From: Caldicellulosiruptor kronotskyensis 2002
GTDB lineage: Bacteria; Bacillota; Thermoanaerobacteria; Caldicellulosiruptorales; Caldicellulosiruptoraceae
Direction: 5' to 3'
NCBI RefSeq assembly: GCF_000166775.1
Contig: NC_014720.1
Span: 645,501-709,500, forward strand
Length of the DNA stretch: 64,000 bases
Program-made: the position numbers and the translations under genes
The notes under the pieces: model-generated
Databases searched by the model: none
What the model saw: the letters and a program-made list of their open reading frames with translations, nothing else
What the model was told of the DNA's origin: nothing
Shown: positions 33,685 through 62,684 of the stretch, piece after piece
How the letters are laid out: every line of letters starts with the position of its first letter
Position numbering within the stretch: position 1 is the first letter of the stretch

Positions 33685-33695
33685 TCTGAAAGTTA

Positions 33696-33958: not shown

Positions 33959-34037
33959 TACTCCATAGCTTAGTATTTACGATTGAAACTATCATCTGCT
34001 TAATTTCAGTTATTGAAAATTATTCTGAAATTAATTT

Positions 34038-36519: not shown

Positions 36520-36696
36520 AAATACAGAATAAAATTTAAATCCATAAAACAGCAAATAAAACAGATTCAATTTAAAACAAATAGAAAATAAAAGCAGAAA
36601 GTAAGGAATATTATCTTTTATCCTTGCAACAAGTGAAGGAGGGTATAAATGCTCAATAGAGCATTTAATTTTAAAAAAAGGAAGGAGGAAATTTAT

Positions 36697-38001: not shown

Positions 38002-38031
38002 ACTTTGAGTATAGTACTTTTCTTTTGCAAG

Positions 38032-38066
38032 ACAAGCCAGCTGAAAAATATTATCAGCTGGCTTGT
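38032..38066 (+). terminator. Hairpin between binding-protein and permease genes
   Basis: ACAAGCCAGCTGA (38032-38044) pairs perfectly with its complement (38054-38066). The T run is short. Such hairpins often protect the binding-protein mRNA or reduce read-through, so more binding protein than permease is made. Confidence 0.65.
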
Positions 38067-38093
38067 TTAACTTGAATTAAAGGAGGAAAAAAC

Positions 38094-39020: not shown

Positions 39021-39023
39021 AAA

Positions 39024-40956: not shown

Positions 40957-40990
40957 TTAAAATCTCACACCTTTCATTCAAATTTTTCTT

Positions 40991-41716: not shown

Positions 41717-41750
41717 CTAAATCCACCCCTAATTTTTATATTGATGAGTT

Positions 41751-44870: not shown

Positions 44871-44954
44871 TCTGTTTTCCTCACTCCTATATTTAGCTAA
44901 TAGTAATAAAAAACTGTTCAAATTTGTTTTGGTTTTTTTATATTTACATCCCTA

Positions 44955-45116: not shown

Positions 45117-46130
45117 GTGGTTAAGATTCCAGCTACAATAAAAGATATAGCAAAGTATACAGGACTTTCAATAGCAACTATATCAAAGTATCTCAATGGT
45201 GGTAATGTGTTAGAAAAAAATAGGATTCTTATAGAAGAGGCAATAAAGGCGCTAGATTTTGAAGTGAATGAGATTGCAAGAGGGCTCAGAACTAATAAGA
45301 CAATGACAATTGGAGTTTTGATTCCTGTTTTTGAAGTTTTCTTTAATACAATTGTATCTTCGTTAGAAAATGTATTGCTTGAAACTGGTTATAGTATTGT
45401 TGTATGTGATTACAGAGATGATGAAAAGTTAGAAAAGGAAAGGTTGGATTTTCTTTATAAAAAAAGAGTTGATGCATTAGTGGTTGTTCCCACATACTTG
45501 AAAGGAAGCGATATCAAAAAGATTATAAAAAGAGACATTCCAATTGTAGCAGTGGACAGACCAATTGATGACTTTGAATGTGATACAATCCTTGTGAACA
45601 ATTTCGAGGTTTCATATCAAGCAGTTGAAAAGTTAATTTTAATGGGGCACAAAAAAATTGGAATAATATGTGGGCCACAGAATATCTATACTGCTCAAGA
45701 AAGGTTGAATGGCTATGTTCAAGCTCATACCGATTTTAACATACCTCTAAATGAAGAATACATAAAGTTTGGAGAATTTCATAATATGGAATCAGGTTAT
45801 AAAAAAATGATTGAATTACTTGAAATCCAAAATCCTCCTTCTGCTGTTTTTGTTACAAATTATGAGATGACTCTTGGTGCTATTATTGCTATAAATGAAA
45901 AAGACATAAAAGTCCCTGATGAGCTGTCAGTTATAGGCTTTGATAATTTAGAAATGGCAAGGATAGTAAAGCCATCATTATCTCTTGTGGTCCAGCCAAT
46001 GGAAGAGATAGGAGAGTCTGTTGCAAGATTGCTATTGAAGAGATTAAAAGGGGATAAAAGTGATTTTCCTTTGCAAAAAAAGTTGAGCGCACAAGTTTTG
46101 ATAAAGAATTCAATCAAAAGAGTAGACTGA
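45117..46130 (+). CDS. LacI-family transcriptional regulator
   Basis: A 337-residue repressor. The N-terminal helix-turn-helix reads TIKDIAKYTGLS, then IATISKYLNGGNV, and the hinge and periplasmic-binding-like sensor follow (TMTIGVLIPVFEVFFNTI near residue 60). It should bind a palindrome with a central CG; two AAACGTTT sites lie in front of the gatY-like operon just downstream. The GTG start at 45117 touches its only ribosome site (GAGAGGGTGG), so the true start may be a rare codon a few bases later. Ligand unknown, likely a sugar of the neighbouring operons. Confidence 0.88.
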   Translation: MVKIPATIKDIAKYTGLSIATISKYLNGGNVLEKNRILIEEAIKALDFEVNEIARGLRTNKTMTIGVLIPVFEVFFNTIVSSLENVLLETGYSIVVCDYRDDEKLEKERLDFLYKKRVDALVVVPTYLKGSDIKKIIKRDIPIVAVDRPIDDFECDTILVNNFEVSYQAVEKLILMGHKKIGIICGPQNIYTAQERLNGYVQAHTDFNIPLNEEYIKFGEFHNMESGYKKMIELLEIQNPPSAVFVTNYEMTLGAIIAINEKDIKVPDELSVIGFDNLEMARIVKPSLSLVVQPMEEIGESVARLLLKRLKGDKSDFPLQKKLSAQVLIKNSIKRVD

Positions 46131-46185: not shown

Positions 46186-46215
46186 TTGACAGATGGATTT
46201 GTTTAATGTTATTCT
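46186..46215 (+). promoter_or_regulatory. Promoter for the gatY-gatZ operon
   Basis: TTGACA (46186-46191), 18 bases, TATTCT (46210-46215), ending 10 bases before the first operator. Confidence 0.65.
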
Positions 46216-46225
46216 ATTATAAAGC

Positions 46226-46271
46226 TAAACGTTTAATTTCTTATTTATTTTTATTAAAAGTAAAACGTTTA
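46226..46271. promoter_or_regulatory. Twin LacI-type operators
   Basis: TAAACGTTTA (46226-46235) and AAAACGTTTA (46262-46271) share the palindrome AAACGTTT; the centres are 36 bases apart, just downstream of the -10. A CG-centred palindrome is typical for LacI-family repressors, and the gene for one ends 96 bases upstream. Confidence 0.75.
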
Positions 46272-46308
46272 GTTATAGATTGTTCATTAAAAAAGGAAGT
46301 GAAAACAA

Positions 46309-47145
46309 GTGGCTATTATCTCTTTGAAAGAAGTTTTTGATTATAGTTTTGTGAAAAGCGCAATTTGTTCTTTTAATTTTGTGAACCTCGAACAATTATA
46401 TGGAATTGTAGCTGCTGCTGATGAGCTTCAAACTCCTGTTGTTTTAATGATTTCACAAAAAACTGCTTTAAAATATGGACTTGAGGTAATGTTCAACTTA
46501 GCAAAATCAAAAGTTGAAAAGCTACATACTCCATTTGTCATTCATTTAGACCATGCAAAGAATATTGAGCTTGTTGAAAAAGCAATTGATTTAGGGTTTT
46601 CTTCAGTAATGTTTGATGGTTCATCACTGTCTTTTGATGAAAATATTAAGAAAACTTACGAAGTTGTAAAAAAAGCTCACAGATATGGGATTGCAGTTGA
46701 GGGCGAAATAAATGCTATATATGGGAAGGAAGAAGATGGCACCCCAAGTGCTATTGTATACACAAAAGTAAAAGATGCCAAGAAGTTTTCAGAAGAAACT
46801 GAGGTTGATTTTTTAGCGGTTAGTGTTGGAACAAAGCATGGACTTTATGAGGGAACGCCTTCTTTGAGGTATGATCTTATCAATGAAATTTCCAATTCAA
46901 TTAAGTCAAAACTTGTTATGCATGGTTGCAGCGGGCTTACAGCTGAACAGTTAAGGAAGTCTATTCAAAGTGGAATTAAAAAGTTGAATTTTGGCACAGA
47001 GGTAATGCTAACACAGATAAACGCAATAAAAAAATCATTAGACAATTTATCTAAACCAGATATAAGGCCAATTATGGACAGTTCAATTGAAGAGATAAAG
47101 GCATATGTAAAGAACACAATTAATAGTATTTGTATTTCACAATAA
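46309..47145 (+). CDS. gatY: Class II aldolase, tagatose/fructose-bisphosphate type (GatY-like)
   Basis: A 278-residue zinc-dependent aldolase. It shows HLDHAKNIELVEKAI near residue 80 (zinc His and the catalytic Asp) and the phosphate-loop region LVMHGCSGLTAEQLR near 205; the second zinc His is in SVGTKHGLYEG. The gene is first in an operon that also contains the gatZ-like gene. Tagatose-1,6-bisphosphate is the usual substrate of the pair. With an FGGY kinase in the operon a ketose 1-phosphate is also possible. GTG start with AAAAGGAAGTG upstream. Confidence 0.85.
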   Translation: MAIISLKEVFDYSFVKSAICSFNFVNLEQLYGIVAAADELQTPVVLMISQKTALKYGLEVMFNLAKSKVEKLHTPFVIHLDHAKNIELVEKAIDLGFSSVMFDGSSLSFDENIKKTYEVVKKAHRYGIAVEGEINAIYGKEEDGTPSAIVYTKVKDAKKFSEETEVDFLAVSVGTKHGLYEGTPSLRYDLINEISNSIKSKLVMHGCSGLTAEQLRKSIQSGIKKLNFGTEVMLTQINAIKKSLDNLSKPDIRPIMDSSIEEIKAYVKNTINSICISQ

Positions 47146-47187
47146 AATTTATGAAAAAGTCAACAAAAAGGAGCGAATGTTTTAAAG

Positions 47188-48231
47188 ATGAAAGCGGCAG
47201 TTTTACACGCAAAAGGTGATATCAGATATGAAGAGGTTGAAGATCCTAAAATAACTGAGGATGAGGTTCTTGTAAAAGTGAGGGCAAGTGGCATATGTGG
47301 GTCTGACATTCCAAGAGTATTGGGTGATGCGGCACATTTTTATCCTATCATATTAGGACACGAATTTTCTGGTGAAATTGTGGAGGTTGGCAAAAACGTT
47401 AAAAACCTTAAAATTGGCGACAGAGTGGTGGGTGCTCCGTTATTGCCATGTTTTAAGTGCAGTGATTGTCAAAAGGGTTGGTATTCGCAATGCAAAAACT
47501 ACAGTTTTATTGGGTCAAGAAGGCAAGGGAGCTTTGCCGAATACATAGCGATTCCTGCAAGAAATGCAATAAAATTTGATGAAAGTATCCCTTTTGAACA
47601 GGCTGTCTTTTTTGAACCATCCACTGTAGCTTTACATGGACTTAGGTGTGTTGATTTTAAAGGTGGCGAAGATGTTTTAGTTTTGGGTGCAGGAACAATT
47701 GGGATTTTTACGTTACAGTGGGCAAGAATAATGGGCGCAAGATGCATCTGTGTTGTTGATATCAAAGATGAGAGACTAAAACTTGCAAAAGAGTTTGGAG
47801 CAGATTTTGTTGTTAATGCAACTGAAGAAAAGTTTACAGAAAAGATAAGTGAACTCACAAAAGGCAGAGGTTTTGGATATGTATTTGAAACAGCAGGTAG
47901 TACTGAGACAATAAAGTTCTCTTTCGAATTTGTTTCAAACAAAGGCTGTGTTTGCCTTATAGGTACACCTACAAAGGATATTGCTTTCTCGCCTCATCTA
48001 TTTGAAAAAATCAATAGGAAAGAGTTTCATCTTACAGGTTCTTGGATGTCATATAGTGCCCCTTTTCCAGGCATTGAATGGGAGTTGACCTCCCAATATT
48101 TTTCAGATAAACGCTTAAAGTTCAGCAATAAGTTGATATACAAAACCTTTCATCTAAAAGATATTAAAGAAGCATTTGAGTTATTTAAAAGTCCGGAGAA
48201 TGTGAAAGGGAAAGTAATCATTTTAAGTTAA
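47188..48231 (+). CDS. Zinc polyol dehydrogenase, GatD-like
   Basis: A 347-residue medium-chain dehydrogenase that strongly recalls E. coli galactitol-1-phosphate dehydrogenase GatD: CGSDIPRVLGDAAHFYPIIL, LGHEFSGEIVEVG and YSQCKNYSFIGSRRQG. Catalytic zinc ligands are the Cys of GICGSD and His-Glu of GHEF; the structural zinc site is PCFKCSDCQKGWYSQC. NAD fold VLVLGAGTIGIF near residue 170. As no PTS is present, the substrate may be an unphosphorylated polyol. ATG start; the GGAG site is rather far (14 bases). Confidence 0.85.
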   Translation: MKAAVLHAKGDIRYEEVEDPKITEDEVLVKVRASGICGSDIPRVLGDAAHFYPIILGHEFSGEIVEVGKNVKNLKIGDRVVGAPLLPCFKCSDCQKGWYSQCKNYSFIGSRRQGSFAEYIAIPARNAIKFDESIPFEQAVFFEPSTVALHGLRCVDFKGGEDVLVLGAGTIGIFTLQWARIMGARCICVVDIKDERLKLAKEFGADFVVNATEEKFTEKISELTKGRGFGYVFETAGSTETIKFSFEFVSNKGCVCLIGTPTKDIAFSPHLFEKINRKEFHLTGSWMSYSAPFPGIEWELTSQYFSDKRLKFSNKLIYKTFHLKDIKEAFELFKSPENVKGKVIILS

Positions 48232-48265
48232 TATATTCAAAAAATTATATAAGGAGGAATATAAA

Positions 48266-49435
48266 ATGGTCAAAAGCTTTAATTACTATCAGCCCACCAG
48301 AATAATATTTGGAGTGGGCAGACGAAAAGAACTTGGCATTTGGGCGAAACGTTTTGGGAAAAAGGTTTTAGTTGTTGTTGACCCGAATGTAGAAAAGTTT
48401 TTGTCTCAGCAGTATCAAGAGATGTTAGATAGCCTTCATTCCGAAGGTATTGAAACCATTGTATTTGATCATGTTATTCCAAATCCCACACTTGACTCAA
48501 TCCAAGAAGGTGCAGAGGTAGCAAAAAGAGAGAAAGTTGATTTTGTAATAGGCATTGGTGGGGGAAGTTCAATTGACACAGCAAAAGCAATAGCAGTTGC
48601 AGCAACCCATGAAGGAAGTGCATGGGATTATCTTTATTTTAAAAAAGAACCTACAGAAAAAACACTGCCTATAATTGGAGTTCCAACAACAGCAGGAACA
48701 GGTACGCAAACATCAAGAGTCTCTGTATTGACAAACACAGAAGAAAAGTGCAAATCAGCAATTGCAAGTGACAATATAATATGCAAGGTTGCAATCGTAG
48801 ATCCAGAGCTTACTTTAACTGTTCCTCCTGCTGTCACTGCATCAACAGGGTTTGATGTGTTTACACATTGCTTTGAGTCATACATAAATGTAAATAATCA
48901 GCCATATGTAGATATGTTGGCACTTGAGGCAATTGGAATTGTGATTAAATATTTGAGAAAAGCTTATGACAATCCAGGTGACCTTGGGGCAAGAACAAAG
49001 ATGGCCTGGGCAGATACTTTAGCAGGATGTTGTTTAGCAAATGTTGGGACGACAATTCCACATGCTTTAGGTCAGGCAATTGGCGGTCATTTCCCGCATG
49101 TAAGTCATGGTCAGAGCTTGGCAGTGGTTTACCCTGCGTTTTTAGATTATACAGTGGACTGGGCTATAGAAAGGTTTGCAAAAGTGGCAAGAATGTTTAA
49201 TCCTGAGCTTGAGAAAGTATCTGACAAAGAAGCAGCCTATGCTTTGAAACAGGAAATTGTTTCATTTTTAAAATCAATCAACCTGTATTACACAATGGAG
49301 GATTTTGGAATAAAGAAAGAGGATGTTAAGGATTTGGTAAAACATGCGATAGAATTTCCTGATAACAGGGTAAATCCAAGAGTTCCTGACGAAAAGGATC
49401 TTGAAGAGCTTTATTTAAAATCGTTTAGAGACTAA
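48266..49435 (+). CDS. Iron-containing alcohol dehydrogenase
   Basis: A 389-residue type III alcohol dehydrogenase. It has the NAD-binding GIGGGSSIDTAKAIA near residue 93, and iron-site His in FDVFTHCFESY and HALGQAIGGHFPHVSHG (residues about 200-275). Relatives include FucO (lactaldehyde reductase) and butanol dehydrogenases. In this operon it could reduce the aldehyde released by the aldolase. ATG after AAGGAGGAA. Confidence 0.88.
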   Translation: MVKSFNYYQPTRIIFGVGRRKELGIWAKRFGKKVLVVVDPNVEKFLSQQYQEMLDSLHSEGIETIVFDHVIPNPTLDSIQEGAEVAKREKVDFVIGIGGGSSIDTAKAIAVAATHEGSAWDYLYFKKEPTEKTLPIIGVPTTAGTGTQTSRVSVLTNTEEKCKSAIASDNIICKVAIVDPELTLTVPPAVTASTGFDVFTHCFESYINVNNQPYVDMLALEAIGIVIKYLRKAYDNPGDLGARTKMAWADTLAGCCLANVGTTIPHALGQAIGGHFPHVSHGQSLAVVYPAFLDYTVDWAIERFAKVARMFNPELEKVSDKEAAYALKQEIVSFLKSINLYYTMEDFGIKKEDVKDLVKHAIEFPDNRVNPRVPDEKDLEELYLKSFRD

Positions 49436-49451
49436 AAAGGAGTAAGCGGGT

Positions 49452-50957
49452 ATGAGAGAATTGCTTTTGGGTATAGATATCGGAACCTCTGCCTGTAAAC
49501 TAAGCGTATTTGATAGAGAAGGGAATGTCATTTTTGATACTTCAAAACCATATAATATTTACTTTCCTCAAGAAGGCTTTGTAGAACAGGATCCTAATGA
49601 ATGGTGGGATGCTGTTGTCAACGCAATTAATGAGATGTTTGCAAAAAATAATATCAGACCAGATGAAATAAAATCAATAGGAATTGCAGGACAAAGTTGG
49701 TCCTGCATTCCTGTTGACAAAAATGGGAATGTCTTATCTAATACACCAATTTGGATGGACACTCGCTCATCTTCTATTTTAGAAAATATCTGTGATAGAA
49801 TTGATGAGAAATATATTTTTGAGGTAAGCAAAAATCCTCTCAATCCCACATATTCAACACTCAAGATTTTATGGTTCAAAGAAAACAAACCTGATGTTTA
49901 TAAAAATACCTATAAGTTTTTACAGAGCAACAGCTTTATTGTTTTTAAACTCACAAATTCTTTTTCACAGGACTTATCGCAAGGGTATGGATATCATTTC
50001 TTCAATATGGAAAAAGGCTGCTATGATGAAAAAGCTGCTGATATGTTTAAAATTGAACTTGAACTTTTGCCACAAATCTATCCATGTCACGAAGTAGTAG
50101 GGTATGTATCAAAAAAAGCTGCAAGTATAACAGGGTTGAAGGAAGGTACACCTGTTGTTGCAGGGGGATTAGATGCAGCTTGTTGCACCTTAGGTGCTGG
50201 TGTTATTGAAGTGGGGCAAACGCAAGAACAAGGTGGGCAAGCAGGTGGCATGAGTATATGCCTTGACAGACCAGTTTCAAATCCAAAGCTTATCTTATCA
50301 TACCATGTTGTACCGGGAAGATGGCTTTTCCAAGGTGGAACTGTTGGTGGTGGAAGCTTAAGATGGTTTTATGAGCAGTTTGGCTATGAAGAAGCAGAAA
50401 CTGCAAAAAGAGAAGGTAAAAGTCCATTTACTATCATGGATGAAAAAGCAGAACGAATTCCTTGTGGTTCAGAAGGACTTATATTCTTGCCATATATGGC
50501 AGGGGAGAGGTCTCCTATTTGGGACAGAAACGCAAAGGGCATTTTCTATGGTGTGAGTTATAAAAAAACAAAGGCTCATTTTATAAGGTCCATTATGGAA
50601 GGATGTGCATATGCGCTGAGACATAATTTAGAAGTTGCAGAAAAGAATGGTGTTAAAATTGATAGACTTTATGCTGTTGGAGGAGCAGCAAATAGCAAAC
50701 TATGGTGTCAGATAAAATCTGATGTAACAGGCAAAATCATTGAGGTGCCAGTCTCGGATAATGCAACAACCCTTGGTGCAGCAATATTAGCAGGATATGG
50801 CGTAGGGATGTTTAAAGATATCTCTAATACTATAAAAGAAATAGTAAAATCGAAGGCAATTTATTTACCATCTTTTGATAATTACAAGCTTTATTCAAGG
50901 TATTATGAACAGTATTTAGAGATCTATGAAAGATTAAAGGAAATAATGAGTAGATGA
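49452..50957 (+). CDS. FGGY-family sugar kinase
   Basis: A 501-residue kinase with the xylulokinase-like layout: ATP-binding LLGIDIGTSACKLSVFD at the start, sugar-site IGIAGQSWSCIPVDKNG near residue 80, and the second-domain motif VAGGLDAACCTLGAGV near 237; the C-terminal YAVGGAANSKLWCQIKSD is the FGGY signature region. It phosphorylates a ketose or polyol before aldol cleavage; which one is open. ATG after AAAGGAG, 16 bases behind the previous gene. Confidence 0.88.
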   Translation: MRELLLGIDIGTSACKLSVFDREGNVIFDTSKPYNIYFPQEGFVEQDPNEWWDAVVNAINEMFAKNNIRPDEIKSIGIAGQSWSCIPVDKNGNVLSNTPIWMDTRSSSILENICDRIDEKYIFEVSKNPLNPTYSTLKILWFKENKPDVYKNTYKFLQSNSFIVFKLTNSFSQDLSQGYGYHFFNMEKGCYDEKAADMFKIELELLPQIYPCHEVVGYVSKKAASITGLKEGTPVVAGGLDAACCTLGAGVIEVGQTQEQGGQAGGMSICLDRPVSNPKLILSYHVVPGRWLFQGGTVGGGSLRWFYEQFGYEEAETAKREGKSPFTIMDEKAERIPCGSEGLIFLPYMAGERSPIWDRNAKGIFYGVSYKKTKAHFIRSIMEGCAYALRHNLEVAEKNGVKIDRLYAVGGAANSKLWCQIKSDVTGKIIEVPVSDNATTLGAAILAGYGVGMFKDISNTIKEIVKSKAIYLPSFDNYKLYSRYYEQYLEIYERLKEIMSR

Positions 50958-50976
50958 AAAAAGAGGCGAATTTCAA

Positions 50977-52266
50977 ATGAGTCCTCAAAATCCATTGATT
51001 GGTTTATTTAAGAATAGAGAAAAAGAGTTTAAGGGTATTATTTCAGTTTGTTCTTCAAATGAAATAGTCTTAGAAGCAGTTTTAAAAAGAATGAAAGATA
51101 CAAACCTACCAATTATTATTGAAGCCACAGCGAACCAGGTAAATCAATTTGGCGGGTATTCTGGGTTGACACCGTCTCAGTTCAAAGAACGAGTTATAAA
51201 AATTGCTCAAAAAGTTGATTTTCCACTTGAGAGAATAATTCTTGGTGGGGACCATCTTGGACCATTTGTGTGGCGTGACCAGGAACCAGAAATTGCTATG
51301 GAGTATGCTAAGCAAATGATAAAAGAATACATAAAAGCAGGTTTTACCAAAATTCACATCGACACGAGTATGCCTTTAAAAGGGGAGAACAGCATAGATG
51401 ATGAAATAATTGCTAAAAGAACTGCTGTGCTCTGCAGGATTGCGGAGGAGTGTTTTGAGAAGATTTCTATAAACAATCCCTATATTACAAGGCCAGTTTA
51501 TGTGATAGGAGCTGATGTGCCACCTCCCGGCGGAGAGTCTTCTATTTGTCAAACAATTACTACTAAAGATGAATTAGAAAGAAGTTTAGAATATTTCAAA
51601 GAAGCATTTAAAAAGGAAGGAATTGAGCATGTATTCGATTATGTAGTTGCTGTTGTTGCAAATTTTGGAGTTGAATTTGGGAGCGATGAAATTGTTGATT
51701 TTGATATGGAAAAAGTAAAGCCGCTAAAAGAACTTTTGGCAAAGTACAATATAGTATTTGAAGGCCATTCTACAGATTATCAAACAAAAGAAAACTTAAA
51801 AAGAATGGTCGAATGTGGTATTGCAATTTTAAAGGTTGGTCCTGCTCTAACATTTACATTGCGCGAAGCGTTAGTAGCACTTAGTCATATTGAAGAAGAA
51901 ATTTATAGCAATGAAAAGGAGAAACTGTCAAGATTTAGAGAAGTTTTATTGAATACTATGCTAACATGCAAAGATCACTGGAGTAAATATTTTGATGAGA
52001 ATGATAAGTTAATTAAGTCAAAGCTCCTATATAGCTATCTTGACAGATGGAGATACTATTTTGAAAACGAGAGTGTGAAAAGTGCTGTTTATTCTCTTAT
52101 TGGAAATTTAGAGAATGTTAAAATTCCACCTTGGCTTGTAAGTCAGTATTTTCCTTCTCAGTACCAAAAGATGAGAAAAAAAGATTTAAAAAACGGTGCT
52201 GCCGACCTAATATTGGATAAAATAGGGGAAGTCATTGACCATTATGTTTATGCGGTAAAAGAATAA
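50977..52266 (+). CDS. gatZ: Tagatose-bisphosphate aldolase accessory subunit (GatZ/KbaZ-like)
   Basis: A 429-residue protein of the GatZ/KbaZ family, needed for full activity and stability of GatY/KbaY aldolases. Typical stretches are IIEATANQVNQFGGYSGLTP near residue 45, IILGGDHLGPFVW near 85 and KIHIDTSMPLKGE near 122. It ends the five-gene operon; no terminator is seen in the following 80 bases. Together with gatY it makes the tagatose-type aldolase the most likely function. Confidence 0.9.
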   Translation: MSPQNPLIGLFKNREKEFKGIISVCSSNEIVLEAVLKRMKDTNLPIIIEATANQVNQFGGYSGLTPSQFKERVIKIAQKVDFPLERIILGGDHLGPFVWRDQEPEIAMEYAKQMIKEYIKAGFTKIHIDTSMPLKGENSIDDEIIAKRTAVLCRIAEECFEKISINNPYITRPVYVIGADVPPPGGESSICQTITTKDELERSLEYFKEAFKKEGIEHVFDYVVAVVANFGVEFGSDEIVDFDMEKVKPLKELLAKYNIVFEGHSTDYQTKENLKRMVECGIAILKVGPALTFTLREALVALSHIEEEIYSNEKEKLSRFREVLLNTMLTCKDHWSKYFDENDKLIKSKLLYSYLDRWRYYFENESVKSAVYSLIGNLENVKIPPWLVSQYFPSQYQKMRKKDLKNGAADLILDKIGEVIDHYVYAVKE

Positions 52267-52412: not shown

Positions 52413-53627
<1,215 letters not shown>

Positions 53628-53655
53628 TAAGTTGTAAAAAATTTTTCAAGATAGA

Positions 53656-53684
53656 TTGACAGATTGTAAATAGAAGAATATAAT
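53656..53684 (+). promoter_or_regulatory. Consensus promoter for the M-box/mgtA transcript
   Basis: TTGACA (53656-53661), 17 bases, TATAAT (53679-53684): both boxes match the sigma-A consensus exactly. Confidence 0.88.
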
Positions 53685-53706
53685 GTAGAAGGACACAAGT
53701 TAATAC

Positions 53707-53861
53707 AATCGTTAGGTGAGGCTCCTATACAGATATACGCTGCTGCTCGGAAACATCGAGAGATGCTAACGGGTCAACAAGTATTATCGAATTAAGGTTT
53801 TACTTAATGCAGCTGGAGGATGCTCCAAAGCTGTATAGTGCCAAAGCTCAACAAAGTGAAA
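53707..53861 (+). ncRNA. M-box (ykoK) magnesium riboswitch
   Basis: The M-box core is recognisable throughout: ATCGTTAGGTGAGGCTCCTA (53708-53727), ACGCTGCTGC (53737-53746), GGGTCAACA (53771-53779), AATGCAGCTGGAGGATG (53806-53822) and AGTGCCAAAGCTC (53837-53849). M-boxes bind several Mg2+ ions and end transcription when Mg2+ is plentiful. A terminator follows at once and an MgtA-type transporter lies downstream, so function and context agree. Confidence 0.95.
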
Positions 53862-53866
53862 TGTTT

Positions 53867-53898
53867 AAAAACCTCTTTCATTCGTTGAGAGGTTTTTT
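53867..53898 (+). terminator. Expression-platform terminator of the M-box
   Basis: AAAACCTCT (53868-53876) pairs with AGAGGTTTT (53888-53896) and the T run is six long. It should form in the Mg2+-bound state. Confidence 0.9.
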
Positions 53899-53926
53899 AA
53901 CTTGCGAAAAAACGGAGGTGAGAAGA

Positions 53927-54058
53927 ATGGACGGTGGAGGTAGTAGTAAAAGCTATAAAGGTATATGTAATATGACATTGAAGAAGGATGGGCATAGTTT
54001 GAGGCCACGTCCATTCTTCTCACACGTGGCCTTTTCAATAAATTTTGCTATTTCTTAA
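53927..54058 (+). CDS. 43-residue ORF in the mgtA leader (candidate leader peptide)
   Basis: ATG 53927 lies six bases after a very good GGAGGTG. The product begins MDGGGSSKSYKGIC and has LRPRPFFSH in the middle; I recognise no family. The codons for the two prolines (54005-54007 and 54011-54013) overlap the left arm and loop of a GC-rich hairpin, and the whole ORF lies inside a larger inverted repeat. A translating ribosome would open these structures, so it may be a regulatory leader peptide between the M-box terminator and mgtA. A true small protein or a chance ORF is not excluded. A longer frame from 53807 would run through the riboswitch and is unlikely. Confidence 0.6.
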   Translation: MDGGGSSKSYKGICNMTLKKDGHSLRPRPFFSHVAFSINFAIS

Positions 54059-54101
54059 AATGCCTATTTATCCCTTCTTTTAATGTCCTATTACATATAC
54101 C
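53960..54101 (+). promoter_or_regulatory. Nested stem-loops between M-box and mgtA
   Basis: Outer arms: GGTATATGTAATA (53960-53972) pairs with TATTACATATACC (54089-54101), continued by GACATT/AATGTC and AGAAGG/CCTTCT with mismatches, about 30 pairs in all. Inner hairpin: GGCCACGT (54003-54010) with ACGTGGCC (54024-54031), then TTTT, which can act as a second terminator. The remaining stretch 54105-54232 shows nothing recognisable except the mgtA ribosome site. Confidence 0.65.
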
Positions 54102-54232
54102 TCCAAAACAATTCCTTTTAATTCCATCGTCTAAGTGCGAAAGTTTTTCACAAAAAAACAAATACTGTAACTGTAAGATTGCAAAAGACTCAGCAGCCTT
54201 AGCCTATTATTGTGTTTTGGAGGTGTATGGAA

Positions 54233-56920
54233 ATGATCAAAATCGCAAAGAAAAATGGATTCACAGATACGATACTTACCCAATTAATTGAGTTTGCGAA
54301 AAAAGATGTAGATGAAGTTTTGGCACAATTAGGCACAGACAGAGAAGGTTTGACTTCTGAGGAAGCAGAAGATAGACTTGAAATGTATGGGTTAAATGAA
54401 GTAGCCCATGAAAAACCAGCTCCTTGGTATATTCAATTGATTAAAGCTTTTATCAATCCCTTCATAGGTATATTGGTATTTTTGGTAATTATGTCATATA
54501 TAACTGATGTACTTTTTACTGCACCTCAAGACAGAGATTGGAGCACCATAATTATTATCTCTATAATGGTAACGGTTAGTGGACTGCTTCGCTTTGTTCA
54601 AGAGTACCGCTCCAATATAGAAGCGGAAAAATTGAAAGCCCTTGTTCACATGACTGCTGCAGTTATTCGCAAAGATACAGGTGAGAGAGAAATAAAAATG
54701 GAAGAAATAGTACCTGGTGATATAATACATTTGACAGCAGGAGATATGGTACCTGCGGATGTTAGGGTTATTACTTCTAAGGACTTATTTATAGACCAAG
54801 CAACTTTGACTGGAGAATCCGAACCTGTGGAGAAATATCCAGATTTAAAAGAAGAAAAAAGAAAAGCTAAGGATTTAAATCTCTCAGATTTAGAAAATAT
54901 ATGCTTTATGGGTACCAATGTAGTGAGCGGCTCTGCTATCGCCGTGGTCCTTTCAACAGGTGACCGTACTTATTTTGGTTCAATGGCAAAGTCCCTTGTA
55001 GGGCATAGGGCAATGACAAGTTTTGAAAAGGGTATTAACAATGTCAGCAAAGTGCTTATCAAGTTTATGGCAGTTATGTTTCCAATTGTTTTTGTGATAA
55101 ATGGCCTTACAAAGGGTAATTGGTTGGATGCATTGCTTTTTGCCTTGGCTGTAGCTGTAGGGCTTACTCCTGAAATGCTTCCAATGATAGTCACTACAAA
55201 CCTTGCTAAAGGTGCTGTGACAATGGCAAAACATAAGACAATTGTCAAGAGATTAGATGCTATTCAAAATTTCGGAGCAATGGATATACTTTGTACTGAT
55301 AAGACTGGCACTTTGACATTAAACAAAATAGTTGTAGAAAAACATCTTGATATACATGGAAATGAAGATGACAGAGTTTTAAGACATGCATATCTTAACA
55401 GTTATTATCAAACAGGTCTGAGGAACTTGATGGATGTAGCCATTTTAGAGTATGGAGCTGAAAAAGGCTTTAATGGTTTAGATAAAATATACAAAAAAGT
55501 TGATGAGATACCCTTTGATTTTGTAAGACGAAGAATGTCTGTAGTTTTAGAGAGCGAAGGTGGGAAAAGGCAGCTTGTAACGAAAGGCGCCGTTGAAGAA
55601 GTGCTTTCCATCTGCGAATACGCTGAGTACAAAGGTGAAGTAGTTACTTTGACAGATGAAATACGCCAAGAAGTAAGAGAAATGGTAAGAAAATTAAATG
55701 AAGACGGAATGAGGGTGCTTGCCGTAGCTCAAAAAAATGATGTTCCACCAGAGGGAGTTTTCAGTGTAGCGGATGAAAGTAAGATGGTTCTCATGGGTTT
55801 TATAGGTTTTCTAGACCCGCCAAAAGAATCTGCACCTTATGCGATAAAAGCCTTAAAAGAACATGGAGTAGATGTAAAAATTCTCACTGGTGACAATGAA
55901 ATAGTGACAAAGAAAATCTGTAAAGAAGTGGGGATTGCTGTAGAGAATATTCTATTAGGAAATGAAATAGAGAATATGACAGATGAAGAATTAGCAGAAG
56001 TAGCAGAAAAGACGACAATTTTTGCAAAACTTTCTCCTATGCAAAAATCGAGAATAATAAAGGCCTTACAAAGCAAAGGCCACATTGTTGGATATATGGG
56101 GGACGGAATTAATGATGCGTCTGCATTAAGAGAAGCCGATGTTGGAATTTCTGTTGACTCTGCAGTAGATATTGCAAAAGAATCAGCAGATATAATACTT
56201 TTAGAAAAAAGTCTTACGGTATTAGAAGAGGGAGTTGTAGAAGGACGCAGAATTTTTGGAAATATTATGAAATACATTGCAATTACATCGAGTTCTAATT
56301 TTGGTAATGTATTTTCAGTTTTAGTAGCAAGTGCATTTTTGCCTTTTTTGCCAATGCAGCCATTGCAACTTCTTTTCCTTAATTTAACTTATGATTTGTC
56401 AATGACATCAGTGCCTTGGGATACAATGGATAAAGAGTATATACAAAAGCCAAGAAAATGGGATGCTGCAAATATAGGCAATTTCATGGTATGGTTTGGA
56501 CCTACTAGTTCAATTTTTGATATAACCACTTATGCTTTGATGTTTTTTGTAATTGGTCCGTTGGTTATAGGTGGCTCTTACTTCTTGTTGCCTGAAGCAC
56601 TTAAACTCCAATTTGTTTCACTTTTCCAAACAGGCTGGTTTGTGGAAAGTTTATGGACACAAACAATGGTAGTTCACATGCTTAGGACCGAAAAGATTCC
56701 TTTTATACAAAGCATTGCTTCATGGCCATTATTACTTTTTACCTCAGCAGCTGTTTCAGTAGGAACGATTGTGCCATTTACTTCTTTTGGAGCTAAACTT
56801 GGGATGACGCCTCTACCAGCAATATACTTCTTGTTCTTGGCAGCTACGCTTCTTGCATACTTGACTTTGGCGCAATACGTTAAAACGAGATTTGTAAAAA
56901 AATTTGGAAGTTTGCTGTAA
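54233..56920 (+). CDS. mgtA: Magnesium-importing P-type ATPase (MgtA type)
   Basis: An 895-residue P3B-type ATPase of the cytoplasmic membrane that takes up Mg2+ at the cost of ATP. Actuator motif TLTGESEPVEK near residue 185; phosphorylation site CTDKTGTLTLN near 355; hinge GYMGDGINDASAL near 623; about ten membrane helices, the last six after residue 680. ATG 54233 lies nine bases after TTGGAGGTG; the ATG at 54227 is too close. An M-box riboswitch controls it, matching the substrate call. It lies between two IS30 copies and has a GNRA-loop terminator, so the unit probably arrived by transfer. Confidence 0.93.
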   Translation: MIKIAKKNGFTDTILTQLIEFAKKDVDEVLAQLGTDREGLTSEEAEDRLEMYGLNEVAHEKPAPWYIQLIKAFINPFIGILVFLVIMSYITDVLFTAPQDRDWSTIIIISIMVTVSGLLRFVQEYRSNIEAEKLKALVHMTAAVIRKDTGEREIKMEEIVPGDIIHLTAGDMVPADVRVITSKDLFIDQATLTGESEPVEKYPDLKEEKRKAKDLNLSDLENICFMGTNVVSGSAIAVVLSTGDRTYFGSMAKSLVGHRAMTSFEKGINNVSKVLIKFMAVMFPIVFVINGLTKGNWLDALLFALAVAVGLTPEMLPMIVTTNLAKGAVTMAKHKTIVKRLDAIQNFGAMDILCTDKTGTLTLNKIVVEKHLDIHGNEDDRVLRHAYLNSYYQTGLRNLMDVAILEYGAEKGFNGLDKIYKKVDEIPFDFVRRRMSVVLESEGGKRQLVTKGAVEEVLSICEYAEYKGEVVTLTDEIRQEVREMVRKLNEDGMRVLAVAQKNDVPPEGVFSVADESKMVLMGFIGFLDPPKESAPYAIKALKEHGVDVKILTGDNEIVTKKICKEVGIAVENILLGNEIENMTDEELAEVAEKTTIFAKLSPMQKSRIIKALQSKGHIVGYMGDGINDASALREADVGISVDSAVDIAKESADIILLEKSLTVLEEGVVEGRRIFGNIMKYIAITSSSNFGNVFSVLVASAFLPFLPMQPLQLLFLNLTYDLSMTSVPWDTMDKEYIQKPRKWDAANIGNFMVWFGPTSSIFDITTYALMFFVIGPLVIGGSYFLLPEALKLQFVSLFQTGWFVESLWTQTMVVHMLRTEKIPFIQSIASWPLLLFTSAAVSVGTIVPFTSFGAKLGMTPLPAIYFLFLAATLLAYLTLAQYVKTRFVKKFGSLL

Positions 56921-56966
56921 CATTTTTGGACAATGGATACAGACAAGTAAAAATATATTAAAACAT

Positions 56967-56991
56967 GAGCAGGAGAAATCCTGCTCTTTTT
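56967..56991 (+). terminator. Terminator after mgtA
   Basis: GAGCAGGA (56967-56974) pairs with TCCTGCTC (56979-56986) around a GAAA tetraloop, followed by five T. Confidence 0.88.
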
Positions 56992-57106
56992 AATACAACA
57001 CATTATAAGATTGAAATATTACAACAATGTTACAAAATATAAAATTTTGGTAAACAAAGGAGGAATTTATATTAATATGTAGAAGTAGTAAAATAGGAGG
57101 GATAAT

Positions 57107-57267
57107 ATGGGGGAGGTCATAAGATTTGAGACACATAAAGACTTTTTGAACAATCTTGGGGGAGATGTTTAAAAAGGGGATTAATGCCAGATAAAAGGTT
57201 AATGGTGTTGAATAATGTAAAAATTGCTGAAGATAGCGAAAAAGATTCACTAATTAAAGCTTTTCAC

Positions 57268-57285
<18 letters not shown>
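57107..57285 (+). pseudogene. Small disrupted ORF cut by IS30 copy 2
   Basis: ATG 57107 has AGGAGGG just upstream and reads MGEVIRFETHKDFLNNLGGD before a stop at 57172. Another frame (57184 on) continues with MPDKRLMVLNNVKIAEDSEK, then DSLIKAFHK, and runs into the IS30 sequence. Possibly one gene with a frameshift and a lost 3' end. No family recognised. Nothing else is seen in 56992-57106. Confidence 0.35.
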
Positions 57286-58454
<1,169 letters not shown>

Positions 58455-58458
58455 TAAG

Positions 58459-58472
58459 TTTCATAACAAATT
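58459..58472. repeat. 14-bp direct repeat, right border of the composite element
   Basis: TTTCATAACAAATT, identical to 52395-52408. Confidence 0.75.
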
Positions 58473-58836: not shown

Positions 58837-58959
58837 TAAGGAGAACAAAAAATGATTGTTATTTGCAAAATAGTACAAAGGTATTGAACAAAAATAAAAT
58901 GTTTTATTGAGAAGTTAAATAATAAACCAACTATATTGCAAATGAAAGGAGATATAATT

Positions 58960-59910
58960 ATGGAATCTTCAATCAATAATAATAAGGGAATTAATTGGAA
59001 GAATATATGGGCTCAACGTTATATTATGATATTAGTATTACCTGTAGTCTTATGGATGATAATTTTTAATTATTTACCAATGCTAGGTTTAATTATAGCT
59101 TTTAAAGAATATGATCCTTTTTTAGGTCCTTTGAAAGGATTTTTAGAAAGTAGATGGGTAGGAATAGATAATTTTAAAGAAATGTTTATGGACAAATATT
59201 TTTGGCAGGCGTTCTGGAATACAATTTATTATAGTGTATTGAATTTAATTGTTGGTTTCCCGTTTGCAATTTTATTTGCTATTTTACTAAATGAAATACA
59301 AAGTATGTGGTATAAAAGATTTGTCCAGACAGTTAGTTATTTGCCGTACTTCATTTCTTGGGTTTTTGTGATTGGTTATATTTATATTATCTTGGCTGAT
59401 AATGGCATTGTAAATGATATATTGCTTAAACTTCATATAATTGACAAGCCGATACCATTTCTTGTAACACCTGACTTTGTTCCACCTATAGTAGTGTTGA
59501 GTAATTTATGGAAGTCATTTGGTTGGAATGCAATAATATTTATTGCAGCTATTACAAATATAGATCCAACATTGTTTGAAGCTGCAATAGTTGATGGAGC
59601 GGGCCGATTTGCAAGAATAAGGTATGTTACTTTACCATCAATAAAACCTACTATCATTATATTACTGATATTCAACATTGCAGGAATAATGACTAATTAT
59701 GGAATGTTTGAACAAATGTATCTTTTGTCAAATGGAGCAATTCAAGATGCTACTGAGATTATTGATACTTATACATTTAAGATAGGTATTGTTTTATCTA
59801 GATTTTCATATGCTACAGCAGTAGGGTTATTTAGATCAGTGGCTGCAGTTGTTTTGTTAGTTTGTGCTAATTCAATATCAAAAAAGCTTACGGGCGAAAG
59901 TTTGTATTAA
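58960..59910 (+). CDS. ABC sugar importer permease, LplB type (third importer)
   Basis: A 316-residue permease. Hydrophobic segments begin at YIMILVLPVVLWMIIFNYLP; the EAA loop is FEAAIVDGAGRFARIRYVT near residue 215. It is closely similar in plan to the 12358 permease. I take ATG 58960 with AAAGGAGAT seven bases upstream instead of the earlier in-frame ATG at 58942 or 58936. Partners are the next two genes; no ATPase gene is present. Confidence 0.9.
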   Translation: MESSINNNKGINWKNIWAQRYIMILVLPVVLWMIIFNYLPMLGLIIAFKEYDPFLGPLKGFLESRWVGIDNFKEMFMDKYFWQAFWNTIYYSVLNLIVGFPFAILFAILLNEIQSMWYKRFVQTVSYLPYFISWVFVIGYIYIILADNGIVNDILLKLHIIDKPIPFLVTPDFVPPIVVLSNLWKSFGWNAIIFIAAITNIDPTLFEAAIVDGAGRFARIRYVTLPSIKPTIIILLIFNIAGIMTNYGMFEQMYLLSNGAIQDATEIIDTYTFKIGIVLSRFSYATAVGLFRSVAAVVLLVCANSISKKLTGESLY

Positions 59911-59934
59911 TAGATGCAGTAAGGAGGAGTAAAG

Positions 59935-60816
59935 GTGAGAATTAGAAGAAGAAGTACTGGCGATATTGTTTTCGACATTTTAAACAATTTGTTTATGCTT
60001 ATAATAGTAATAATTACATTATATCCATTTTATTACATTATAATTTCTTCTTTTAACGATCCTATAGATTTATTAAAAGGTCCTGTATATTTATGGCCTA
60101 GAAAATTTTCAGTGGTCAATTACATATATATTTTTCAAGAGAAGGCTATTTTAAATGCGACGTTTATAACAGTTGCAAGAACAGTAATAGGAAGTGCAAC
60201 AGCTGTATTATTTACTGCTGCATTTGCATATGGTATTTCAAGGAAATGGTTAATAGGAAGAAAGTTATTTATAAAAATGGCGATAGTCACTATGTACTTC
60301 AGTGGAGGATTAATTCCTACATATTTACTTATAACACGTTTTTTAAATTTAGCAGGTAACTTTCTTGTTTTTATTATTCCTAATTTGTTCAATGCTTATA
60401 ATGCGTTTATTATGTATTCATTTTTCAAAGGGATACCTGTCGAAATAGAAGAATCTGCCAAGATAGATGGGGCAAATGATATTATAATCTTTTTTAAATT
60501 GATTCTTCCTCTAAGTTTACCCATACTTGCTACAATTGCTTTGTTTAATGGTGTATGGCATTGGAATTCTTGGTTTGATGCGTTGTTATACGGAGAAGGA
60601 AAATTAGAAACATTACCATTATATTTAGTTAGGGCTATTCAGTCAGCTACTGCAAGTGCAGCAGAAGCTGGGAGATTTGTTTCGACAACAGGTATAACAT
60701 CCACATCTATAAGACTGACTACTATGGTAGTTACTACATTTCCTATAACAATAGTTTATCCATTTCTTCAGAAGTATTTTGTCAAAGGTATAATGATAGG
60801 TGCTTTGAAGGATTAA
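59935..60816 (+). CDS. ABC sugar importer permease, LplC/YtcP type (third importer)
   Basis: A 293-residue second permease. First hydrophobic stretch NLFMLIIVIITLYPFYYIII; EAA loop IEESAKIDGANDIIIFFKL near residue 178; C-terminal KYFVKGIMIGALKD. GTG start after AAGGAGGAG, 24 bases behind the first permease. Confidence 0.9.
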   Translation: MRIRRRSTGDIVFDILNNLFMLIIVIITLYPFYYIIISSFNDPIDLLKGPVYLWPRKFSVVNYIYIFQEKAILNATFITVARTVIGSATAVLFTAAFAYGISRKWLIGRKLFIKMAIVTMYFSGGLIPTYLLITRFLNLAGNFLVFIIPNLFNAYNAFIMYSFFKGIPVEIEESAKIDGANDIIIFFKLILPLSLPILATIALFNGVWHWNSWFDALLYGEGKLETLPLYLVRAIQSATASAAEAGRFVSTTGITSTSIRLTTMVVTTFPITIVYPFLQKYFVKGIMIGALKD

Positions 60817-60868: not shown

Positions 60869-60892
60869 ATGTGGCTAAACGATTCATCTTGA
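60869..60892 (+). other. Seven-codon ORF with a perfect ribosome site
   Basis: AAGGAGGTG (60851-60859) followed by ATG 60869 and only MWLNDSS before TGA. It lies in the 185-base gap between the permease and binding-protein genes. It may be a leader peptide, or the start of a lost gene. Confidence 0.35.
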
Positions 60893-61001: not shown

Positions 61002-62684
61002 ATGAAAAATAAGTATTGCAAATTGATATCAATAATTCTGGTTTTCGCTTTAATAGTTTCTTTAGTCTCCATTGGATATGTTTATAAATATGAGGTTAAA
61101 GCTGCTTCATCTAATAAAACAACAAAGAATATAAAGGTAAAATATTCTTGGCAAAAAGATACCTCGCCTTTTAAATTTGATTTGTATTTTTTTGGTGCAT
61201 GGGGTTCGTTTTATCGTTGGAATGGAACGTTAGTAGAAAAATGGATCACAGAAGCAACTGGTGTTACACCAAATATAATTGTTCCAACGGGTGATGAAAA
61301 ACAGTATCTTAATGTTATGATCGCTTCTAATAATTTGCCTGATGCTATGGTTCTTGAATGGTATGCTCCAGAAACAAAAAGACTGATTAAGGCAGGAAAA
61401 ATTTATTCGGTAAACGAATTATGTCAAAAATATGCACCAGAATTTTGGGATATGATACCAAAAGAAGTAAAAGAATATCACAAATTTGATGATGGTAAGC
61501 TTTATTATATTCCATCGTTCTTCACTACCAAAGAAGAGTATGAACAAGGTTTAGAAAAGCATAACGCAAGACCATTGTTTATTCAAAGAGGAATATATAA
61601 AGCTTTAGGAAATCCAAAAATTAATTCAACAGATGATTTTCTTAATTTACTGAGAACAATAAAGAAAAAGTATCCCAATTTAAAACCATTTGCAATAGAA
61701 CCACCAGTTGATGTTAATCAGTGGGGACTTACAGGAAGCTTAACTTTAGCATTTTTTGCAGGTATTTTTGCTCCAGAAACATATGGTAGAGACATCTATC
61801 TAGATTCAAAAGGAAATATAAAATTTATTTTTGAAAATCAGAATTTTGTTGAGGCTGTAAGATTCTTGAATAAGATTTATAGAGAAGGGTTAATAACATC
61901 ATACGAATTGATGATGAAGCATGAAAATTATCAAGATTTAGTAGAATCAGCTCAATACGCTGTTATAGCTCGATTCCCAATTGATATTTGGAAGCAGCAC
62001 AATCCCAAAATTTTGAAACTTACCAAAGATGAAGGTAGGACATATATGCCATTGCCGTATTTTAAATATAAGGGTAAGAATCCTCAGTTTGCAGGTGGTA
62101 GAGGAGCAGGTTGGGTTGGTTCTATGGTTACAAAAAATGCTAAAAATCCGGGAAGGATAATACGATATTTTGAATATAGTTGGAGCGATGAAGGACAATT
62201 GACAAATCTGTTTGGTAAAAAAGATGTGACATATTATATCGATAAAAATGGAATGCCGAGATACAAACCAGAAGTATTAAAAGAATTACAGGAAAAACCA
62301 GAAACTTTAGATACTAAATATGGATTTGAGAGAAGATTGCTAATGTGGAGATCAAAATGGGCAGGATGGCAAAGAATAGCAATGGCACCCAAGGAATATG
62401 AAGATTACTTAAGATCAGTTGCACGTTATGGTGTAGATATTTGGAATCTAGGTCTTGATAATCTTGACCCGGATCCAACTACTAAAGAAGGAGTTTTTTA
62501 TGCGAAAATCAAAAACATATGGAACAAATATCTTGTACAGATGGTATTAGCTAAAGATGATAATACTTTTAAGAAGGCTTATGAAAGTGCATTGAAAGAA
62601 ATGAAGAATGCAGGCTTAGAGCAGGTAAGAAAAGTTATGTACCAAAACCATTTAAAAGATTTGGCTAAGAAAAAAGGTATGTAA
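61002..62684 (+). CDS. Sugar-binding protein of the third importer, LplA type
   Basis: A 560-residue extracellular solute-binding protein. Residues 1-35 form a Sec signal (LISIILVFALIVSLVSIGYV) with no lipobox Cys. The mature part includes FYRWNGTLVEKWITEATGV and NVMIASNNLPDAMVLEW near residues 70-125, as in LplA-type proteins. ATG after AAAGGAGGA. It follows the two permeases and precedes a GH31 glycosidase, so an alpha-linked oligosaccharide is a likely ligand. Confidence 0.88.
   Translation: MKNKYCKLISIILVFALIVSLVSIGYVYKYEVKAASSNKTTKNIKVKYSWQKDTSPFKFDLYFFGAWGSFYRWNGTLVEKWITEATGVTPNIIVPTGDEKQYLNVMIASNNLPDAMVLEWYAPETKRLIKAGKIYSVNELCQKYAPEFWDMIPKEVKEYHKFDDGKLYYIPSFFTTKEEYEQGLEKHNARPLFIQRGIYKALGNPKINSTDDFLNLLRTIKKKYPNLKPFAIEPPVDVNQWGLTGSLTLAFFAGIFAPETYGRDIYLDSKGNIKFIFENQNFVEAVRFLNKIYREGLITSYELMMKHENYQDLVESAQYAVIARFPIDIWKQHNPKILKLTKDEGRTYMPLPYFKYKGKNPQFAGGRGAGWVGSMVTKNAKNPGRIIRYFEYSWSDEGQLTNLFGKKDVTYYIDKNGMPRYKPEVLKELQEKPETLDTKYGFERRLLMWRSKWAGWQRIAMAPKEYEDYLRSVARYGVDIWNLGLDNLDPDPTTKEGVFYAKIKNIWNKYLVQMVLAKDDNTFKKAYESALKEMKNAGLEQVRKVMYQNHLKDLAKKKGM

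What the first reader, a model, noticed from the sequence alone, without database searches (positions are those of the whole stretch)
46186..52266. PTS-free GatY/GatZ operon with FGGY kinase and two dehydrogenases
gatY-like and gatZ-like aldolase subunits normally serve PTS-dependent galactitol or N-acetylgalactosamine pathways. Here they bracket a GatD-like dehydrogenase, a FucO-like iron dehydrogenase and an FGGY kinase, with no PTS or phosphofructokinase. Two routes fit: polyol to ketose to ketose 1-phosphate to DHAP plus an aldehyde that the iron enzyme reduces; or tagatose 6-phosphate finished by a host phosphofructokinase.
Basis: partly seen in the sequence, partly recalled or inferred. 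Interest (0 to 1): 0.6.

Follow-up and report, generated by a model that had tools for sequence, protein, structure and literature searches.

The report
Tagatose operon fed by plant-wall sugar
A heat-loving bacterium (probably Caldicellulosiruptor) carries a real sugar-degrading operon that most likely turns an unusual plant-wall sugar, probably L-galactose, via galactitol and tagatose into ordinary fructose 6-phosphate; it is one form of a pathway shared by many Clostridia whose substrate has not been tested.

Summary
Window 46186-52266 has a sigma-70-like promoter, two LacI-type operators and five same-strand genes 16-42 bp apart: class II aldolase (GatY-like), GatD-like Zn dehydrogenase, Fe dehydrogenase, FGGY kinase and GatZ. 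A LacI gene precedes them; no PTS or PFK gene lies among them.

The interpretation needs changing. GatZ is itself a tagatose-6-phosphate 4-epimerase (published for E. coli), and its active-site residues are kept here. In 80 named relatives found through the FGGY kinase, 77 keep the Zn dehydrogenase; 18 carry GatZ without GatY, 50 GatY without GatZ, one both. PfkB-type kinase occurs in 42 of 51 GatY loci and in none of 19 GatZ loci. GatZ and GatY+PfkB therefore look like alternative exits from one intermediate, D-tagatose 6-phosphate. The Caldicellulosiruptor LacI keeps the operator of the Clostridial GatZ-type loci. Those loci also encode an aldose reductase and a mutarotase; downstream here lie an ABC transporter, GH31, GH39, GH95 and GH127.

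Best reading: L-galactose to galactitol to D-tagatose to tagatose 6-phosphate to fructose 6-phosphate, with an aldolase side exit. The core is well supported by comparative genomics. The starting sugar, and the roles of the divergent aldolase and Fe dehydrogenase, are inferred.

The parts
45117..46130 (+). LacI-family repressor (local regulator)
   Evidence: Pfam LacI + Peripla_BP_3; 50-60% identical to the LacI gene next to FGGY in many Clostridial loci
46186..46215 (+). promoter-like site TTGACA-18-TATTCT
   Evidence: consensus match only, but just upstream of two operators and conserved in G001/G004
46221..46240 (+). LacI operator 1, AAAGCTAAACGTTTAATTTC
   Evidence: score 22.0 with a matrix built only from Clostridial sites; about 0.7 chance sites of 9.5 or more per 64 kb
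46257..46276 (+). LacI operator 2, AAAGTAAAACGTTTAGTTAT
   Evidence: score 19.7; conserved in G001 and, weaker, G004
46309..47145 (+). divergent class II ketose-bisphosphate aldolase (GatY-like, not GatY proper)
47188..48231 (+). Zn alcohol dehydrogenase, GatD-like; predicted galactitol to D-tagatose
   Evidence: galactitol-1-P 5-dehydrogenase model 2.3e-100 but below its cut-off; nearest solved structure 4a2c; next to FGGY in 77 of 80 loci
48266..49435 (+). group III Fe-dependent alcohol dehydrogenase; role inferred (aldose or aldehyde reductase)
   Evidence: only one relative outside the genus at E<=1e-110 in the 398-genome draw, 48% identical
49452..50957 (+). FGGY sugar kinase; predicted D-tagatose 6-kinase
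   Evidence: XylB-type FGGY, 358 against cut-off 380; core of the Clostridial cluster family
50977..52266 (+). GatZ/KbaZ-family protein; predicted D-tagatose-6-phosphate 4-epimerase
   Evidence: PF08013 7.8e-150; C20, E44, D87, H88, H257, K279 kept and E171 replaced by D
52436..58472 (.). insertion between GatZ and the transporter: two IS30-like copies (52436-53643 and 57265-58472, 99.4% identical) flanking a P-type ATPase gene; not part of the pathway
   Evidence: the same gap is about 630 bp in G001
58936..60816 (+). two ABC-transporter permeases, directly after GatZ in G001
60871..60890 (+). possible further LacI operator before the solute-binding protein gene
   Evidence: score 10.6 (G001 13.0), weak
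61002..62684 (+). 560-aa protein with no Pfam match, placed as the solute-binding protein of the ABC transporter
   Evidence: no Pfam hit; position after the permeases; 95% identical in G001
62752..64000 (+). GH31 glycosidase (runs beyond the window), followed in the genome by GH39, GH95, GH95, GH127, GH51-like and GH4 genes

Best explanation
The operon is the Caldicellulosiruptor form of a LacI-controlled pathway widespread in Clostridia. Its core runs: galactitol oxidised by the Zn dehydrogenase to D-tagatose; D-tagatose phosphorylated by the FGGY kinase to D-tagatose 6-phosphate; GatZ epimerises that at C4 to fructose 6-phosphate, which enters glycolysis. A second exit, used alone in species without GatZ, is a host or cluster kinase plus a class II aldolase via tagatose 1,6-bisphosphate. 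Galactitol is most likely made inside the cell by reducing an aldose, and the best candidate aldose is L-galactose cut from complex xylan or xyloglucan side chains by GH95 after uptake by the ABC transporter. Galactitol is meso, so reduction followed by oxidation moves an L-sugar into the D-series. Shown: gene content, conservation, alternative exits, conserved operator, GatZ active-site residues. From the literature: GatZ epimerase activity. Inferred: kinase product, the aldose, Fe-ADH as aldose reductase, and the divergent aldolase cleaving tagatose 1,6-bisphosphate made by host PFK.
For: E. coli GatZ and KbaZ convert fructose 6-P to tagatose 6-P while GatY, KbaY and FbaA do not (PMC11907403); the residues named there are kept here. 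80 loci: Zn-ADH 77; GatZ only 18, GatY only 50, both 1 (Fisher p 1.5e-9, not corrected for shared ancestry); PfkB 42/51 with GatY, 0/19 with GatZ. At least 5 switches between exits on the FGGY tree. Same operator: 16 of the 19 loci with the closest kinases have it, 0.78 expected; a matrix from those loci finds the two window sites as its best hits. AKR in 63 loci, nearest solved structures aldehyde and aldose reductases; FucU or aldose-1-epimerase in 32. GH95 lies in the downstream gene run of G000/G001 and upstream of LacI in G004; its second-best PDB relative is the L-galactosidase 4UFC, which releases L-Gal from corn xylan in a locus that also has GH31 (PMC4491172). G004 lost most of gatZ while the other genes stay under purifying selection.
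Against: No activity was measured. Cluster-type AKR is absent from the genus and FucU from this genome, so the aldose-entry genes seen elsewhere are missing and Fe-ADH is only a guess for the reductase. GH95 enzymes can be fucosidases, and the Thr once thought to mark L-galactosidase is also found in a fucose-specific enzyme (PMC8245568). G004 has L-fucose isomerase and GH29 nearby, with a weak operator (score 11.0) upstream, which also fits L-fucose. The divergent aldolase groups with neither cluster GatY nor E. coli GatY/KbaY.
Confidence: 0.55

Rival explanations
1. L-fucose pathway with a substituted aldolase: L-fucose isomerase (encoded elsewhere) makes L-fuculose, the FGGY kinase makes L-fuculose 1-phosphate, the divergent aldolase gives DHAP plus L-lactaldehyde, and Fe-ADH reduces that to 1,2-propanediol.
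For: Fe-ADH resembles lactaldehyde reductase (3.8e-71 but 240 against cut-off 523; nearest structures are methanol and other alcohol dehydrogenases, FucO lower). GH95 in the locus; GH29 and L-fucose isomerase near the operon in G004 with a weak operator upstream. PMC8579813 says lactaldehyde reductase is missing from Caldicellulosiruptor genomes.
Against: Leaves Zn-ADH and GatZ unexplained. The kinase scores 128 against cut-off 471 for fuculokinase and is XylB-like. Orthologous clusters carry PfkB and GatY, and a 6-deoxy ketose cannot be phosphorylated at C6. FucA/RhaD-family genes exist in all 12 genus members, and C. bescii is reported to grow on fucose with a separate FucR regulon.
Confidence: 0.17
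2. Import of galactitol (or D-galactose reduced to galactitol) rather than L-galactose; the same downstream chemistry.
For: Same core enzymes; the published Agrobacterium galactitol and D-altritol routes use PF00107 and PF08013 enzymes (from memory, Wichelecki 2015, not held). Fusobacterial and Lacrimispora clusters carry an aldose 1-epimerase, and two clusters carry PTS genes.
Against: Mutarotases and an aldose reductase in the clusters point to an aldose, not a polyol. C. bescii has separate galactose genes (PMC8579813). FucU and GH95/GH29 point to L-fuco/L-galacto sugars.
Confidence: 0.2
3. One reading: FGGY makes a ketose 1-phosphate, the divergent aldolase cleaves it to DHAP plus glyceraldehyde or a similar aldehyde, and Fe-ADH removes the aldehyde; GatZ acts only as a chaperone of the aldolase.
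For: Aldolase and Fe-ADH occur together in all three species; the aldolase stays under purifying selection in G004 without GatZ.
Against: G004 also shows the aldolase does not need GatZ as partner. The arginine of the DPR motif of bisphosphate aldolases is kept as DIR. GatZ occurs without GatY in 18 of 80 loci.
Confidence: 0.13
4. Sulfosugar pathway (sulfo-EMP2-like): GH31, SqiA-like aldolase and Fe-ADH as sulfolactaldehyde reductase.
For: SqiA is PF01116 (PMC9594981); weak resemblance of Fe-ADH to sulfoacetaldehyde reductase SarD (252.9 against cut-off 700).
Against: GH31 is far closer to 5f7c and the alpha-xylosidase YicI than to YihQ. SqiK is PF00365, not FGGY. No isomerase of that route in the operon.
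Confidence: 0.02

Closest known systems
E. coli gat and aga/kba operons
   Same: A GatD-type dehydrogenase, a class II aldolase and GatZ/KbaZ around tagatose 6-phosphate
   Different: E. coli uses PTS import and kinase PfkB; here an ABC transporter follows and an FGGY kinase replaces PTS phosphorylation; the aldolase is divergent
Agrobacterium galactitol/D-altritol pathway (PF00107, PF00294, PF08013; recalled, paper not held)
   Same: Polyol to D-tagatose to tagatose 6-P to fructose 6-P by a GatZ-family epimerase
   Different: FGGY kinase instead of PfkB-family tagatose kinase; extra aldolase and Fe-ADH; LacI-controlled, linked to xylan side-chain hydrolases
Clostridial LacI-FGGY-ZnADH-GatZ-FucU-AKR clusters (e.g. 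Ruminiclostridium papyrosolvens L117, Anaerobacterium chartisolvens L116)
   Same: Orthologous LacI, FGGY, Zn-ADH and GatZ; same operator
   Different: Caldicellulosiruptor lacks FucU and cluster AKR; has the divergent aldolase and Fe-ADH instead
B. ovatus PUL-XylL (GH31, GH95 and others for corn xylan, PMC4491172)
   Same: GH31 and GH95 combination for complex xylan side chains
   Different: Bacteroidetes polysaccharide locus; no link to a tagatose pathway shown in the passages read

Membership tests
GatZ/KbaZ family (PF08013), T6P 4-epimerase | Match above the Pfam gathering score over full length | tested here: met
   499.6 bits against 26.7, positions 7-419 of 420
GatZ/KbaZ family (PF08013), T6P 4-epimerase | Active-site residues C20, E44, D87, H88, E171, H257, K279 (E. 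coli GatZ numbering) | tested here: met
   Six identical, E171 replaced by D, as also in L024
GatZ/KbaZ family (PF08013), T6P 4-epimerase | Epimerase activity | not testable with these tools
   Needs an enzyme assay
GatY/KbaY tagatose-bisphosphate aldolase | Score above NCBIfam tagatose-bisphosphate aldolase cut-offs | tested here: not met
   TIGR01858 194 against 443; PRK12737 209 against 383
GatY/KbaY tagatose-bisphosphate aldolase | Groups with characterised GatY/KbaY in a tree | tested here: not met
   Separate long branch
Class II ketose-bisphosphate aldolase family (TIGR00167) | Score above subfamily cut-off | tested here: met
   217.7 against 215.6
L-fuculokinase (FGGY) | Score above TIGR02628 cut-off | tested here: not met
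   127.7 against 470.9
Xylulokinase XylB | Score above TIGR01312 cut-off | tested here: not met
   358.2 against 380.25, near miss; the genome has another FGGY, 35% identical
Galactitol-1-phosphate 5-dehydrogenase (GatD) | Score above NF007642 cut-off | tested here: not met
   336.2 against 550
Lactaldehyde reductase FucO | Score above TIGR02638 cut-off | tested here: not met
   239.9 against 523.15
Clostridial LacI-FGGY-ZnADH pathway family | Orthologous LacI, FGGY and Zn-ADH with the TAAACGTTTA operator | tested here: met
Clostridial LacI-FGGY-ZnADH pathway family | Aldose reductase (AKR) present | tested here: not met
   No cluster-type AKR in the 12 genomes of the genus at E<=1e-20

The most novel reading that the evidence does not exclude
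A previously undescribed oxidoreductive L-galactose pathway in Clostridia: L-galactose is reduced to meso galactitol and re-oxidised to D-tagatose, crossing from the L- to the D-series without an isomerase, and tagatose 6-phosphate then leaves by one of two interchangeable exits, GatZ epimerase or PfkB plus GatY. Caldicellulosiruptor has swapped the aldose-entry enzymes and carries both an aldolase and GatZ.
Probability: 0.38. Interest if true: 0.7.

Novelty: new variant of a known kind. Interest (0 to 1): 0.5.

Why it matters
If right, it gives a function to a large family of FGGY kinase clusters in Clostridia, supports GatZ as a stand-alone epimerase rather than an aldolase chaperone (18 of 80 loci have GatZ and no GatY), and would be a route for L-galactose, a sugar of corn-fibre xylan, in biomass-degrading and gut bacteria. 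Thermostable tagatose-6-phosphate epimerase and kinase would also be useful for making tagatose.

Tried and rejected
A first genome-contig scan with single GatZ found nothing, so it was repeated with an alignment of FGGY kinases. The 550-aa ORF in GatZ's place in G004 looked like an alternative epimerase; it is a carboxylesterase ORF whose start is a gatZ remnant, so the idea of a substituted epimerase was dropped. Sulfosugar reading rejected on GH31 and kinase family. The GH95 Thr/His marker was considered as proof of L-galactosidase and set aside after reading PMC8245568. A classical LacI operator (TGTAANCGNTTACA) gave only chance matches; the real motif came from inspecting the LacI-aldolase gap. 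The short core motif searched alone in the window is not above chance; only the 20-bp matrix is. The Agrobacterium paper and the class II SF-1-P aldolase paper are not held. The paper searches turned up no description of an oxidoreductive L-galactose route. Structure prediction was not used: it would not settle substrates.
Full report
OBSERVATION. The array is real. Downstream of a LacI gene (45117-46130) lie five genes on the + strand with gaps of 42, 34, 16 and 19 bp: class II aldolase, Zn-ADH, Fe-ADH, FGGY kinase, GatZ (families). The window lies in a 2.84-Mb single-contig genome. I take the genus to be Caldicellulosiruptor from gene content and size; no tool named it. The operon is present in 3 of 12 species of the genus: G000 (this genome), G001 (94-98% identical) and G004 (85-95%, GatZ lost). 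dN/dS among them is 0.04-0.18.

THE OPERON IS LONGER THAN GIVEN. In G001 two ABC permeases, a 561-aa protein (placed as the solute-binding protein) and a GH31 follow GatZ after about 630 bp. In the window the same genes (58936 onward) are pushed away by about 6 kb: two IS30-like copies 99.4% identical flank a P-type ATPase gene. Beyond the window come GH31, GH39, GH95, a second GH95 (this genome only), GH127, a GH51-like arabinofuranosidase and GH4. GH31 and GH95 are also in the B. ovatus locus for corn xylan, whose GH95 releases L-galactose (PMC4491172). Corn-fibre xylan carries alpha-L-galactose (PMC5708106). In G004 a GH95 sits just upstream of LacI, and L-fucose isomerase and GH29 are nearby.

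GATZ IS AN ENZYME. E. [quoted passage not shown] Of the seven residues singled out there, six are identical in the window protein and the seventh is a conservative E to D. A PFK is therefore not required, although the host has two PFK and three PfkB matches.

ALTERNATIVE EXITS. The FGGY kinase leads to a family of clusters. A scan of named genomes with an alignment of these kinases gave 80 loci, almost all Clostridia. Within 7 kb of the kinase, 77 have the Zn-ADH, 63 an aldo-keto reductase and 32 a mutarotase (FucU or aldose 1-epimerase). GatZ alone: 18; GatY alone: 50; both: 1; neither: 11 (several on short contigs). PfkB accompanies 42 of 51 GatY loci and none of 19 GatZ loci. The p-values ignore shared ancestry, so the kinase tree matters more: at least five switches between the two exits. 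GatZ and PfkB+GatY have one substrate in common, tagatose 6-phosphate, and that is why I assign it as the kinase product. GatZ without GatY in 18 loci also argues against GatZ being only a GatY partner.

SAME REGULON. The gap between LacI and the aldolase holds two copies of a palindrome (46221 and 46257). Of the 19 loci with the most similar kinases, 16 carry the core motif within 2.5 kb upstream of the kinase gene, against 0.78 expected. A matrix trained only on those loci finds the two window sites as its best hits, 22.0 and 19.7. The Caldicellulosiruptor LacI is 50-60% identical to the cluster LacI proteins. A shared repressor, operator, kinase, dehydrogenase and GatZ make a shared inducer likely.

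WHICH SUGAR. Mutarotase and aldose reductase in the clusters mean that an aldose enters. FucU is an L-fucose-type mutarotase. GH95 or GH29 genes lie in or beside some clusters (L111, L127, L158) and beside the Caldicellulosiruptor operon, and L158 also carries close relatives of this genome's GH31 and GH39 (73 and 77%). L-fucose itself does not fit: it lacks the C6 hydroxyl needed for the bisphosphate exit. L-galactose differs from L-fucose only in having that hydroxyl; its reduction gives meso galactitol, which a GatD-like enzyme can oxidise to D-tagatose. This is inference from established chemistry. The Thr in GH95 once proposed to mark L-galactosidase is present but not diagnostic (PMC8245568).

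WHAT REMAINS UNSOLVED. The genus has no cluster-type AKR and this genome no FucU. In their place are the divergent aldolase and Fe-ADH. I assign Fe-ADH as aldose reductase and the aldolase as tagatose-1,6-bisphosphate aldolase fed by host PFK, both with low confidence. G004 lost most of gatZ (13 N-terminal residues plus 186-216 remain, fused to a carboxylesterase ORF) while the aldolase, Zn-ADH, Fe-ADH, kinase and LacI stay under purifying selection, so the aldolase does not depend on GatZ there. The L-fucose reading explains aldolase plus Fe-ADH but not Zn-ADH, GatZ or the orthologous clusters.

VERDICT. Observation confirmed; interpretation partly supported and revised. A new variant of a known kind (tagatose 6-phosphate pathways), with a more novel reading, an oxidoreductive L-galactose route, at about 0.38.

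Noticed in passing
window 52436-58472: Composite-transposon-like insertion: two IS30-like copies (99.4% identical over 1.2 kb) flank a P-type ATPase gene (54212-56920) and separate GatZ from the ABC transporter; absent from G001.
   Followed up: partly
L029 8248-9900 (- strand), species G004: gatZ decayed by deletion: its start and residues 186-216 are fused in frame to a carboxylesterase ORF.
   Followed up: yes
window 39967-44921 (- strand): Divergent block GH106, GDSL esterase, Gfo/Idh oxidoreductase; the same three-gene block also lies near the operon in G004 (L193 3916-8821), judged by gene order and near-identical sizes.
   Followed up: no
window 28195-35402: Two family 11 rhamnogalacturonan lyases, one with S-layer domains, and a SBP/permease ABC system at 36649-39866: a pectin side-chain region next to the operon.
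   Followed up: no
L030 (CP102408.1), Fusobacteria bacterium ZRK30 plasmid, 10001-18827: Plasmid-borne version of the cluster: FGGY, AKR, GatD-like, GatY, PfkB, FucU, aldose epimerase and PTS EIIC.
   Followed up: partly
L029 3950-3969: Weak LacI-type operator (score 11.0) upstream of L-fucose isomerase and GH29 in G004, hinting at a wider regulon.
   Followed up: partly
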